A DNA stretch of 35,515 nucleotides from Akkermansiaceae bacterium (lineage in GTDB: Bacteria > Verrucomicrobiota > Verrucomicrobiia > Verrucomicrobiales > Akkermansiaceae), in assembly GCA_903888515.1 (NCBI GenBank), contig CAISTY010000091.1:1-35515 (forward strand), written 5' to 3'. The notes under the pieces are model-generated. The model had not been told where the DNA came from. It saw only the letters and a program-made list of their open reading frames with translations, and searched no databases. The translations under genes were made by a program, and so were the position numbers. Positions 1 to 28,875 of the stretch are shown piece after piece. Every line of letters starts with the position of its first letter. The first letter of the stretch is position 1.

Positions 1-136
1 ATGACCCATGACCCATGACCCATGACCCATGACCCATGACCCATGACCCATGACCCATGACCCATGACCCATGACCCATGACCCATGACCCATGACCCAT
101 GACCCATGACCCATGACCCATGACCCATGACCCATG
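1..136. repeat. Heptanucleotide tandem repeat (ATGACCC)19
   Basis: Nineteen perfect head-to-tail copies of ATGACCC fill bases 1-133, followed by a partial ATG. The array may continue left of the window. Because 7 is not a multiple of 3, the plus strand meets a TGA every 21 bases in every frame. The minus strand (GGGTCAT units) has no stop. The array lies downstream of the uracil-DNA glycosylase gene and is followed by a run of ten G at 146-155. Perfect copies imply recent expansion by slippage. Confidence 0.97.
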
Positions 137-25362: not shown

Positions 25363-28300
25363 ATGACTGCTGCCGAAATCCGCCAATCGTTCCTCGATTT
25401 TTTTCGCGAGAAACAACACACCATCGTGCCGTCCGCATCGCTGTTGCCCCAGTCTCCCGGACTGTTGTTCACCAATGCCGGCATGAACCCCTTCGTCCCG
25501 TTTTTCCTCGGTGTCCAAAAAGCCCCCTATCACCCGCCACGCGCTGCGGATACCCAGAAATGCATCCGCGCTGGCGGCAAACACAACGACCTCGATGATG
25601 TCGGCTATGACACCTATCACCACACGTTCTTTGAGATGTTGGGAAACTGGTCGTTCGGCGATTATTTCAAAAAGGAAGCCATCCAGTGGGCTTGGGAACT
25701 CGTCGTCGAACGCTGGGGCCTGCCCGCCCATCGCCTCTACGCATCGGTTTACGCCCCGCAACCCGGCGACCCCGGCAAATTCGACCAGGAAGCCTGGGAC
25801 ATCTGGGCCGCGCTGTTCATTTCCAAAGGGTGCGACCCCGCCGTCCAGATCGTCAACGGCAACGTCAAAGACAACTTCTGGATGATGGGCGAAACCGGCC
25901 CCTGCGGCCCGTGCTCGGAACTCCACGTTGATCTGACACCGGCAGGCGACACCCGTGGCGCCCTCGTCAACAACGGCTCCGACCTGTGCATCGAGATCTG
26001 GAACCTCGTTTTCATCCAATACAACGCCGAGGCCGACGGCAGCTTCCGCGAGTTGCCCGCCAAACACGTCGATACCGGCATGGGCTTCGAGCGCGCCTGC
26101 TCGATCATCCAGAACACCAAGGGCTTCACCGATTTTTCTAACAAACCATCCAACTACGCCACCGACGTCTTCACTCCCATCTTCCGCAAACTCGAAACAC
26201 TCAGCGGAAAATCCTACGCCAATATCTATCCGGAACCCGGCGCCAACCGCGCGCTTTTCACCGGTGAAATGAAAACCGCGATCGCCTTCCGCGTCATCGC
26301 CGACCACCTCCGCACGCTCGCGTTTTCCATTGCCGACGGCATCATGCCCGGCAACAACGGCCGCAACTACGTGTTGCGCCGCATTCTCCGCCGTGCTGTT
26401 AGATACGGCCGCCAACTTGGATTCTCCGGCGAAAAACCGTTCTTCGCCGCGCTCGTCCCGACGCTCGTTGCGGAAATGGGCGGGGTTTTCCCCGAACTGT
26501 TAGCCCGCCAGGACGCCATCCGCCAAACCCTCGAACAAGAGGAAACCAGCTTCAATCAAACACTGGATCGGGGACTCAAGCGCTTTGAGGAAGCGGTGGG
26601 GGATCTTCCAAGTGTGGGGGTGGCGCCGCTTCCAGGGGTGGCGCCGCTTCCAGGGGTGGCGCCGCTTCCAGGGGTGGCGCCGCTTCCAGGGGTGGCGCAC
26701 GCTTCCAGCGTGCATGGTTCCGCATCCTGCGGAACTTCTTCCCCAAAATCCGCCCAAGGCGCACTTTACTCCAAGCGTGATTTGCCCCACTTCGAGCGCC
26801 CCTGGGGCAAATACTTCATAACCTGCAATACCCAAGATCATTTGTTGCTGCCGGATTCATCCCGCCAAACTGTCCTTGACGCCATCCTGCATTTCCACGG
26901 CTCACGCTACATCTTGTTTGCCGCAGTGGTCATGCCCGATCACGCTCATCTGCTCATCGAACCCCAGCCCAAGGAGTATGATGCCGAAGGTCATCCGATC
27001 TTCTGGTCGCTTGGCGAGTTGATGCATTCTATCAAATCTTTCACCGCGAAGGAAATCAACAAGCAACTCGGTCGCACGGGGCCTGTCTGGCAGAAAGAAT
27101 CCTATGACCGCCTGATACGCTCCGACTCGGATCTGGGAGAAAAGTTTGAATACATCACCACCAATCCGCAACGATCCGGGCTGACCGACGAGGGTTCCTA
27201 TCCATATGTTTGGTCGCGGGGGTGGAGTGAAACTTCGATGGAACAACTGCGCGGCGATGCCGCGAAGTCTCTGCAGATCCTTTCGCTGGAAGCGTGCGCT
27301 ACCCTTTCCGGCGACATTGCCTTCGAACTCTATGACACATTCGGCTTTCCAATCGACCTAACAGAACTGCTCTGTGCCGAGCGCGGCCTCACCGTGGACA
27401 TGCCGCGCTTCGAGAAGCTGATGGAACTCCAACGCGAGCGCGCCCGTGCCGCCCAAAAGACCACCGTCGTCCGCGCCCTCGACATTTCCACTGAAGCCAC
27501 CACTGAGTTTGTTGGATTTGAGTTGGATGAAGTGGCAGCGACCATCCTCGAAGTCCACCCGCAGGAGGACGCGCTGTTTGTCATCACCGATAAAACCGTC
27601 TTTTACGCCGAAATGGGCGGCCAGGCCGGCGATACCGGCACACTTGTCATCCATGGATCCGAACTCCCCATCACCGGTACCCAACAGATCGGCAAAGCCC
27701 GCGCTCTTGTCATATCTCAAATTTCAAATTCCAAATTTCAAATCGCCCCGGGCGACAAAGTCATGCTGCGGTTCGACCCCTCCCGCCGTCGCCCGATTGA
27801 AGCTCATCACACCGCCACCCACCTGCTCCACTGGGCGCTTCACGAAGTCGTTTCCAAGGACGCGACCCAGCAAGGCTCGTCCGTCGATGAATACCGCCTG
27901 CGTTTCGACTTCAACAGCGCCGCTCTAACATCCGAGCAGATCGCAATGATGGAGGACATGGTCAACGGCGCGATCAAACAGGACATGGCCGTTTCCTGGA
28001 CGGAAGTGAAACACGCCGACATCAAAGACCGCGCCGACATCATGCAGTTTTTCGGCGACAAGTACGGCGAGATCGTCCGCGTCGTCGAGATCGGAGGCAA
28101 GCGCAACGCGCTCGACGGCTACTCGATGGAACTTTGCGGTGGCACCCATGTCCGGAACACTTCGGAGATCGGCCTTTTCAAAATCAAATCCGAGGGCGCC
28201 ATCGCCGCCGGCGTCCGGCGCATAGAGGCCGTCTGCGGAGAAGCCGCATGGAACCACCTCAACGAAGTGGGCGATAAATGGCGCCACGAGTACAAAGCCA

Positions 28301-28875
28301 GCCAAGCAAAACTCGCCGCCGCCAACGACAAACTAAAAGTCCTCGGCGAGGCTCCCGTCACCGTCAACGAGTTCCCGCACATCATGGGAGCCATGCTCGC
28401 CGAGCGCGCGGATATCAACGAAATCAACGCCGTCTTCGCCCACGGTGCCCGCACACTTGAAGAAACCCAGCAAGCCTCCATCGAGGCCGAAAAACGCATC
28501 AAAAAAATCCAGTCATCCCAAGCCGCCCGAATGGCCGACGAGGCTCTAGCCGACCTGATCGCCACAGGCGGGCCCATCATCGCCAGCTTCGAGGCCGATG
28601 CCTCACTCCTCCAGGAACTCCAGAACGGCCTGAAGAAAAAGAACTTCGCCGGCCCCGCACTGCTCATCGTCGATGACGGCGAAAAACTCCATCTCGCCAC
28701 CCACTGCGGGGCGACCGCTCTATCAAACGGCCTCAAGGCCGGTGACCTGCTCCGCGATCTGGCCGCCCTCGCCGGCGGCAAGGGCGGCGGCAAACCCGAC
28801 CAGGCCCGCGGCGCCGCTCCGGACCGCACGAAAATCGCGGCGCTGCAAGCCGCTGCGGCCGGAATGTTGAGATAG
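25363..28875 (+). CDS. alaS: Alanyl-tRNA synthetase carrying an in-frame transposase-domain insertion
   Basis: A 1170-residue protein, far longer than the usual 870-950. The ATG at 25363 starts MTAAEIRQSFLDFF, the standard AlaRS N-terminus. The catalytic domain (FTNAGMNPFVPFFLG, ENWSFGDYF-type LGNWSFGDYFKKEAI, NVKDNFWMMGETGPCGPCSE) and middle helical domain precede an insertion at about 420-646. The AlaRS frame resumes at TLSGDIAFELYDTFGFPIDLTELL. The editing domain keeps HHTATHLLH (His816, His820) and the CGGTH motif, and the C-Ala oligomerisation domain is present. The inserted segment contains a complete Y1_Tnp/RAYT-like domain (see separate entry). No stop or shift interrupts the frame, so the protein should be made in full unless the RNA is processed. 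A second small insertion of about 11 residues (ISQISNSKFQI) lies before the editing domain. Confidence 0.94.
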   Translation: MTAAEIRQSFLDFFREKQHTIVPSASLLPQSPGLLFTNAGMNPFVPFFLGVQKAPYHPPRAADTQKCIRAGGKHNDLDDVGYDTYHHTFFEMLGNWSFGDYFKKEAIQWAWELVVERWGLPAHRLYASVYAPQPGDPGKFDQEAWDIWAALFISKGCDPAVQIVNGNVKDNFWMMGETGPCGPCSELHVDLTPAGDTRGALVNNGSDLCIEIWNLVFIQYNAEADGSFRELPAKHVDTGMGFERACSIIQNTKGFTDFSNKPSNYATDVFTPIFRKLETLSGKSYANIYPEPGANRALFTGEMKTAIAFRVIADHLRTLAFSIADGIMPGNNGRNYVLRRILRRAVRYGRQLGFSGEKPFFAALVPTLVAEMGGVFPELLARQDAIRQTLEQEETSFNQTLDRGLKRFEEAVGDLPSVGVAPLPGVAPLPGVAPLPGVAPLPGVAHASSVHGSASCGTSSPKSAQGALYSKRDLPHFERPWGKYFITCNTQDHLLLPDSSRQTVLDAILHFHGSRYILFAAVVMPDHAHLLIEPQPKEYDAEGHPIFWSLGELMHSIKSFTAKEINKQLGRTGPVWQKESYDRLIRSDSDLGEKFEYITTNPQRSGLTDEGSYPYVWSRGWSETSMEQLRGDAAKSLQILSLEACATLSGDIAFELYDTFGFPIDLTELLCAERGLTVDMPRFEKLMELQRERARAAQKTTVVRALDISTEATTEFVGFELDEVAATILEVHPQEDALFVITDKTVFYAEMGGQAGDTGTLVIHGSELPITGTQQIGKARALVISQISNSKFQIAPGDKVMLRFDPSRRRPIEAHHTATHLLHWALHEVVSKDATQQGSSVDEYRLRFDFNSAALTSEQIAMMEDMVNGAIKQDMAVSWTEVKHADIKDRADIMQFFGDKYGEIVRVVEIGGKRNALDGYSMELCGGTHVRNTSEIGLFKIKSEGAIAAGVRRIEAVCGEAAWNHLNEVGDKWRHEYKASQAKLAAANDKLKVLGEAPVTVNEFPHIMGAMLAERADINEINAVFAHGARTLEETQQASIEAEKRIKKIQSSQAARMADEALADLIATGGPIIASFEADASLLQELQNGLKKKNFAGPALLIVDDGEKLHLATHCGATALSNGLKAGDLLRDLAALAGGKGGGKPDQARGAAPDRTKIAALQAAAAGMLR
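26621..26692. repeat. Four perfect 18-bp tandem repeats (VAPLPG)4 in alaS
   Basis: TGGCGCCGCTTCCAGGGG occurs at 26621, 26639, 26657 and 26675, each 18 bases and perfect, encoding VAPLPG units. A fifth, variant unit (TGGCGCACGCTTCCAGCG) starts the RAYT element at 26693. The 18-base period preserves the alaS frame whatever the copy number, so expansion and contraction are tolerated. Confidence 0.96.
26690..26735. repeat. REP-like hairpin pair at the left end of the RAYT insertion
   Basis: GCACGC-TTCCA-GCGTGC (26697-26713) and GTTCCGCA-TCC-TGCGGAAC (26717-26735) are perfect stems with short loops, four bases apart. Paired hairpins at one side of a RAYT gene are the usual arrangement of its own REP/BIME substrates. 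Here they are inside translated alaS sequence. Confidence 0.88.
27285..27304. repeat. Inverted terminal copy closing the RAYT insertion
   Basis: GCTGGAAGCGTGCGCTACCC matches the reverse complement of 26690-26709 at 19 of 20 positions. It lies just before alaS similarity resumes and marks the right boundary of the element. Confidence 0.88.
27712..27745. repeat. AT-rich repeat inserted in alaS
   Basis: The stretch (ATATCTCAAATTTC, then AAATTCC, then AAATTTCAAATC) is AT-rich inside a GC-rich gene and contains two near-copies of ATTTCAAATTCC. It encodes ISQISNSKFQI between KARALV and APGDKV. AlaRS proteins normally have only a short linker here. It looks like a second repeat element captured in frame. 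Confidence 0.7.

What the first reader, a model, noticed from the sequence alone, without database searches (positions are those of the whole stretch)
26621..27304. REP-associated transposase domain living in frame inside alanyl-tRNA synthetase
Seen: alaS reads without a stop through about 228 extra codons that contain a full HUH transposase domain (VVMPDHAHLL, KSFTAKEIN, YDRLIR, YITTNP), and returns to canonical AlaRS at TLSGDIAFELYDT. Known: RAYT genes normally sit alone between genes, flanked by REP elements. Inferred: an element landed in the variable linker between the helical and editing parts of an essential enzyme, and the frame was preserved or selected. Either the synthetase tolerates a large internal domain, the domain has been exapted (for example REP processing coupled to synthetase expression), or the insert is made separately from internal GTG/TTG starts. 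I know of no described tRNA synthetase-RAYT fusion.
Basis: partly seen in the sequence, partly recalled or inferred. Interest (0 to 1): 0.93.

Follow-up and report, generated by a model that had tools for sequence, protein, structure and literature searches.

The report
REP transposon riding inside essential enzymes
The only alanyl-tRNA synthetase gene found in this draft bacterial genome carries, in frame, a REP-type transposase with its inverted DNA ends, and more than two hundred other housekeeping proteins in the databases carry such a transposase too, so it is likely a mobile element that survives by being translated as a passenger domain inside essential enzymes.

Summary
alaS (25363-28875, +) reads unbroken through 228 extra codons that encode a RAYT (HUH transposase) between two inverted REP arms; no other alaS was found in the 93%-complete assembly.

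It is one case of a class. Embedded RAYTs occur in AlaRS, ThrRS, LeuRS, IleRS, MetH, CarB, IspG, RecG, PriA, PurH, GcvP and others. In this genome MetH (twice), CarB, IspG and a DUF1156 protein also carry them. Of 43 Verrucomicrobiota loci found by RAYT sequence alone, 40 lie in frames of 500 aa or more. In AlaRS, 100 of 108 mapped insertions share one linker.

All 276 embedded RAYT domains aligned keep H, H and Y. RAYT dN/dS is 0.09-0.17 in close pairs, while the REP-coded junctions drift. Similar AlaRSs can hold very different RAYTs at that linker; insert-less and REP-only alleles occur in the same genus. AlphaFold predicts a separate RAYT domain on disordered tethers, matching solved RAYT 4ER8.

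Best reading: catalytically selected REPtrons living as unspliced, in-frame guests in tolerant linkers. Mobility, full-length translation and host-enzyme activity are inferred. My searches of open-licence PMC papers found no description.

The parts
25363..28875 (+). alaS with the in-frame insert, ATG to stop (1170 codons plus stop)
   Evidence: only PF01411 gene found in the genome
26598..27304 (+). inserted element as read in frame, from the G-run after GAAGCGGT to the end of the right REP arm
   Evidence: comparison with insert-less alleles L063, L065; the left border is an estimate because about 6-7 native linker residues are missing or replaced
26617..26708 (+). tandem array of 18-bp units (5.1 copies) resembling a shortened REP; period divisible by 3
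26690..26713 (+). left REP: GTGG head and palindrome; its core has 7 exact copies in the genome
26770..27234 (+). RAYT domain (155 aa)
   Evidence: NF047646; model closest to 4ER8
26941..26949 (+). HUH motif (H-A-H) of the RAYT active site
   Evidence: sequence; conserved in 276 of 276 embedded domains aligned
27151..27153 (+). catalytic Tyr codon of the Y---NP motif
   Evidence: sequence; alignment to TnpA-REP 4ER8; 276 of 276; motif class as in PMC6006769
27284..27304 (-). right REP arm with GTAG head, 95% complementary to 26690-26710
27305..28872 (+). AlaRS continues: LSGDIAFELYDT, editing domain (PF07973), DHHA1 domain

Best explanation
This is a REPtron, a RAYT transposase between inverted REP ends, that lies in frame in a linker of the only AlaRS gene found and is likely translated as an unspliced guest domain of a working synthetase, where it would persist as a mobile element. 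The RAYT has no stop of its own and in most relatives no Met start, so its expression likely depends on the host gene. Host and guest are predicted to fold separately, joined by disordered REP-coded tethers, so aminoacylation and editing would continue. Selection on the host keeps the frame open. Selection on the guest keeps its HUH/Y active site, presumably because only elements that can still cut and join single-stranded DNA at REPs spread to new linkers or replace one another. Loss is presumably rare because only a precise in-frame deletion is tolerated in an essential gene. Shown: architecture, REP ends, conserved catalytic residues, purifying selection, many hosts, shared insertion sites, host-label changes on a tree, insert-less and REP-only alleles. 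Not shown: the full-length protein, host-enzyme activity, transposition.
For: Unbroken frame, domains and single alaS. Inverted REP ends in the window and around 60 of 62 embedded RAYTs tested, against 15% of 200 mismatched flank pairs. Hosts: of 240 distinct listed proteins (120 of 327 hits, 120 of 350 hits) MetH 118, AlaRS 74, ThrRS 22, RecG 12, CarB 3, IspG 2, others 9. Searches by RAYT alone: 40 of 43 Verrucomicrobiota loci in frames of 500 aa or more. H, H, Y in 276 of 276 embedded domains. RAYT dN/dS 0.09-0.17 in 15 pairs of six genomes, AlaRS parts 0.04-0.24, junctions 0.22-5.15. One linker holds 100 of 108 AlaRS insertions. Host labels change 24 times (minimum 14; shuffles at least 119). 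Same-site replacement: AlaRS distance 0.08, RAYT distance 1.74, P0014 and L086. REP-only allele at the site in G245 and insert-less alleles in the same genus. Separate domain on tethers in the AlphaFold model.
Against: No protein, activity or transposition data. [quoted passage not shown] In MetH most RAYTs form one large clade (103 of 127 domains), which looks like long vertical residence rather than mobility. Insertion relative to today's insert-less alleles is not clean. One of 13 AlaRS-RAYT genes seen in relatives (G010) has a frame break inside the RAYT. In more distant pairs RAYT dN/dS reaches 0.53, with high synonymous divergence. The protein searches find candidates by shared words, which may favour intact motifs. 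Across the phylum only 36 of 150 listed matches are in frames of 500 aa or more, so embedding is not general for RAYTs. Low confidence in parts of the model, AlaRS residues 24-43 and 64-89 included, pTM 0.51.
Confidence: 0.72

Rival explanations
1. Domestication: the embedded RAYT is an exapted single-strand DNA or REP-processing or regulatory domain that benefits the cell and is no longer a mobile element.
For: Strong purifying selection and intact active sites; one large MetH clade, 103 of 127 domains, with uniform protein lengths.
Against: Many unrelated host enzymes with no shared function; same-site replacement by distant RAYTs, and 12 presence/absence changes on the AlaRS tree; insert-less alleles in the same genus.
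Confidence: 0.2
2. The insert is removed before the enzyme works: protein splicing, RNA splicing, ribosome bypass, or excision of the DNA in part of the cells.
For: None directly; inteins and introns use this strategy, and IS200/IS605-type enzymes excise single strands (recalled).
Against: No intein family match in Pfam or NCBIfam and no Rfam match in the window. The frame stays open through near-neutral junctions in all 12 AlaRS fusions, which removal at DNA or RNA level would not require; one further copy, G010, is broken.
Confidence: 0.05
3. Artefact or decay: an assembly chimera at the 18-bp repeats, or a dying alaS copy.
For: Draft genome of 309 contigs with tandem repeats at the left junction.
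Against: Same architecture in many records, including contigs above 4 Mb for ThrRS and MetH hosts (P0112, P0190, P0241, P0276); no second alaS found; AlaRS parts of relatives under purifying selection.
Confidence: 0.02

Closest known systems
RAYT / TnpA-REP in REPtrons (IS200/IS605-related Y1 HUH transposases, class 2)
   Same: HUH and Y---NP motifs, fold (4ER8), inverted flanking REPs with GT(A/G)G heads (PMC2817692 and PMC6006769, passages)
   Different: Described as separate genes flanked by REPs; here gene and REPs are read in frame inside another protein, without own stop and mostly without Met start
Intragenic REPs (for example Opitutus terrae) and Rickettsia palindromic elements
   Same: Palindromic elements read in frame inside protein genes (PMC3733652, passages)
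   Different: Those encode about 20-82 amino acids and no enzyme; here the element encodes a transposase domain
Inteins with homing endonucleases
   Same: In-frame, nuclease-bearing insert in conserved enzymes, recurrent sites, patchy distribution (recalled; intein papers seen only in the listing)
   Different: No splicing domain found; sits in variable linkers; the enzyme is an HUH transposase with hairpin DNA ends

Membership tests
RAYT (REP-associated tyrosine transposase) | HUH motif and catalytic Tyr in Y---NP | tested here: met
   sequence of the window; alignment to 4ER8; 276 of 276 embedded domains keep H, H, Y and 267 of 276 the Asn
RAYT (REP-associated tyrosine transposase) | family profile NF047646 over its curated cut-off | tested here: inconclusive
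   80.4 bits on the excised piece against a cut-off of 80; 74.9 bits in the whole protein
RAYT (REP-associated tyrosine transposase) | fold of the solved RAYT | tested here: met
RAYT (REP-associated tyrosine transposase) | flanked by two inverted REPs with GT(A/G)G head | tested here: met
   arms 26690-26710 and 27284-27304, 95% complementary, heads GTGG and GTAG
RAYT (REP-associated tyrosine transposase) | abundant REP copies in the genome | tested here: inconclusive
   7 exact copies of the 19-nt core, 9 with up to 2 mismatches; 0 for the reversed control
RAYT (REP-associated tyrosine transposase) | REP cleavage or transposition activity | not testable with these tools
   needs a bench test
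Intein | Hint / protein-splicing domain | tested here: not met
   no such family among Pfam or NCBIfam matches at E up to 1
Self-splicing intron | group I or II intron RNA | tested here: not met
   no Rfam match at gathering score in the window
Intragenic REP / RPE | palindromic element in frame in a protein gene, without own enzyme | tested here: not met
   in frame, but it encodes a RAYT domain; the REP-only allele of G245 would meet it
Alanyl-tRNA synthetase | alaS equivalog over cut-off, with editing and DHHA1 domains | tested here: met
   TIGR00344 759.2 bits (cut-off 457), PF07973, PF02272

The most novel reading that the evidence does not exclude
A distinct lifestyle of mobile DNA: REPtrons that have given up their own start and stop and live as translated, unspliced domains nested in linkers of essential enzymes, moving from linker to linker and from gene to gene by single-strand cutting at their hairpin ends. 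This is an intein-like strategy without protein splicing, so far dropped from surveys as fusions or annotation errors.
Probability: 0.5. Interest if true: 0.95.

Novelty: new variant of a known kind. Interest (0 to 1): 0.88.

Why it matters
If right, a transposase class described as stand-alone genes has a second life inside host enzymes, in at least a dozen unrelated protein families. That would be a second route besides inteins for selfish DNA to shelter in essential genes, a natural large-scale test of where enzymes tolerate a nested domain, and a way to approach the open question of how RAYTs are maintained. It also means that many housekeeping proteins of Verrucomicrobiota differ in size and annotation from what is assumed.

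Tried and rejected
Intein: no such family. Intron: no Rfam match. Second alaS: none found in G000. Assembly error: same architecture in many records. Synthetase-specific exaptation: hosts are many and unrelated. I first suspected that the longer AlaRS linkers of other families (48-121 aa in six f4 genomes, 75-128 aa in three f1 genomes) were RAYT remnants; by eye they show no RAYT, so the site also takes up other inserts. Mapping of insertion sites failed for CarB and IspG (positions not usable). Dropped before counts: 29 of 123 AlaRS sequences without the anchors (27 with RAYT, 2 without) before the tree; 7 short domains, two of them the pieces of the frame-broken G010 copy, and identical domains; pairs with high synonymous divergence of the RAYT were not printed. 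Some genes are counted twice (a protein hit and the genome locus of the same gene, such as P0001 and L082). Frames of 500 aa or more are a proxy for embedding where the host was not identified.

Full report
What is in the sequence. The window is contig C91 of a draft genome of 5.3 Mb in 309 contigs, 93% complete. alaS runs from the ATG at 25363 to the stop ending at 28875 without a break. Between the anchors FNQTLDRG and AFELYDTFGFP the window has 248 residues and an insert-less allele of the same genus (L063) has 20. The 228 extra codons hold, in order, a tandem array of 18-bp units that resemble shortened REPs, a left REP, a 155-aa RAYT domain and a right REP in inverse orientation; the two 21-nt arms are 95% complementary. 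The heads are GTGG and GTAG, as in published REPs (PMC2817692, passages). No other alaS was found in the genome.

It is a class. A search with the RAYT region but at whole-protein length gave 327 long proteins; of the 120 listed plus the window's own, hosts are AlaRS 75, ThrRS 22, RecG 12, MetH 6, CarB 3, DNA methylase 2, SF2 helicase 1. A second search with a MetH-embedded RAYT of this genome gave 350; of 120 listed, MetH 112, DUF5107 4, IspG 2, restriction-type methylases 2. The 240 listed proteins are distinct and 231 of them have AlaRS, ThrRS, RecG, MetH, CarB or IspG as host. These searches pick long proteins by design. Searches by RAYT alone are less biased. In this genome and 38 relatives, 48 of the 66 best matches (E up to 6e-15) are in frames of 500 aa or more; the weaker matches of that list are mostly in frames below 400. 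Further hosts named by profile: PriA, IleRS, RarA, HAM1, PurH, GcvP, an SNF2 helicase, LeuRS, adenosine deaminase and a PglX-like methylase. In this genome, besides AlaRS: MetH with two RAYTs, CarB, IspG (cut by the contig end) and a DUF1156 protein; a seventh match is a free-standing RAYT. Embedding is not general for RAYTs: in 194 genomes across the phylum, 65 have a match at 1e-10, and 36 of the 150 listed matches are in frames of 500 aa or more; the six closest (E below 1e-60, the window among them) all are.

Ends and sites. AlaRS elements of the lineages compared start and end with lineage-specific palindromes headed GGGGAGC, GGGGAAC or GGGTGGC. Of 62 embedded RAYTs, 60 have flanking inverted arms scoring at least 13; of 200 mismatched flank pairs 15% do. 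Mapped on one insert-less AlaRS, 100 of 108 insertions share one linker, 7 a second site and 1 a third (some genes appear twice). For MetH, by my binning, 115 of 133 share one site, 7 a second and 11 are ambiguous. A genome of the same genus, G245, has only a REP pair at the AlaRS site, and others such as G118 and G231 have nothing. Compared with those, 6-7 native residues are missing or replaced at the site, so the insertion is not clean.

Selection. All 276 embedded RAYT domains aligned keep both His and the Tyr; of 64 free-standing ones 59 do (short and identical domains were dropped first). RAYT dN/dS is 0.09-0.17 in the 15 pairs among six genomes, AlaRS parts 0.04-0.24, the 5' junction 0.22-1.19 and the 3' junction, only 20 codons, 0.36-5.15; more distant pairs give RAYT values of 0.10-0.53 with high synonymous divergence. 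The 12 AlaRS fusions are unbroken. A thirteenth, G010, has a frame break inside the RAYT at an A-run near a contig start, an error or real. The junctions are thus free in sequence but, as far as seen, held in frame, as expected if they are translated.

History. On a tree of 340 RAYT domains, host labels change 24 times among embedded ones with 15 labels; the minimum is 14 and 100 shuffles gave 119 or more: long residence with occasional switching. On the AlaRS tree (94 of 123 sequences usable) RAYT presence changes 12 times (100 shuffles: mean 29.7, minimum 23). Host and guest distances correlate moderately (r 0.47, n 54, above all 999 shuffles), and similar AlaRSs can hold very different RAYTs at the same site (P0014 and L086: 0.08 against 1.74). 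I read this as replacement or repeated insertion at a preferred linker. In MetH, by contrast, 103 of 127 domains fall in one clade.

Mechanism. I read the element as a REPtron read in frame from the host gene and kept as a passenger domain. Host selection keeps the frame; guest selection keeps the active site. [quoted passage not shown] the host switches found here argue otherwise. A beneficial, domesticated role is the main rival, strongest for MetH.

Known or new. The parts are known: RAYTs, REPtrons, in-frame REPs (most numerous in Opitutus terrae among the GTAG species surveyed; PMC3733652, passages) and Rickettsia elements. The whole, a transposase with its ends nested in frame in many essential enzymes, I did not find (open-licence PMC papers only; of the 113 papers holding RAYT terms, 40 were listed). 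Databases already carry automatic names such as alanyl-tRNA synthetase/REP element-mobilizing transposase RayT, and one survey discarded unexpectedly long members as gene fusions or annotation errors (PMC6006769).

Noticed in passing
L018 3215-7570 (-) (G000 C107:13714-18069): MetH of the same genome carries two RAYT domains in one 1452-aa frame, one between the B12-binding and activation domains and one inside the activation domain.
   Followed up: partly
L021 2900-5257 (G000 C24): IspG with an embedded RAYT and long runs of repeated peptides (DSGSCVA-like before it, GLEQDAPATFTP-like after it), cut by the contig end.
   Followed up: no
L019 3483-7862 (G000 C231): CarB with an embedded RAYT and repeated REP-like peptides such as IGGGIGGG and GVPPVSEDGRPACSS read in frame.
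   Followed up: no
window 1-136: Contig end made of a 7-bp tandem repeat, ATGACCC, 19.4 copies without mismatch.
   Followed up: no
G010 C76, locus L025: Only AlaRS-RAYT copy seen with a frame break, inside the RAYT at an A-run near a contig start.
   Followed up: partly
L105-L110, L097, L101, L102: AlaRS linkers of other relatives hold inserts of 48-128 aa at the same site that show no RAYT by eye.
   Followed up: partly
G005 C28:8184-10325: A second, insert-less AlaRS gene (52% and 41% identical in two parts) in a relative that also has the RAYT-bearing alaS; contamination or a true second copy.
   Followed up: no
L015 1399-2017 (-) (G000 C106): A REP of the window's type read in frame at the end of a NuoJ-like protein (named by eye).
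   Followed up: no
P0005-P0008, P0010, P0185-P0191, P0195: Database proteins with two RAYT domains in one AlaRS, MetH or IspG frame.
   Followed up: no
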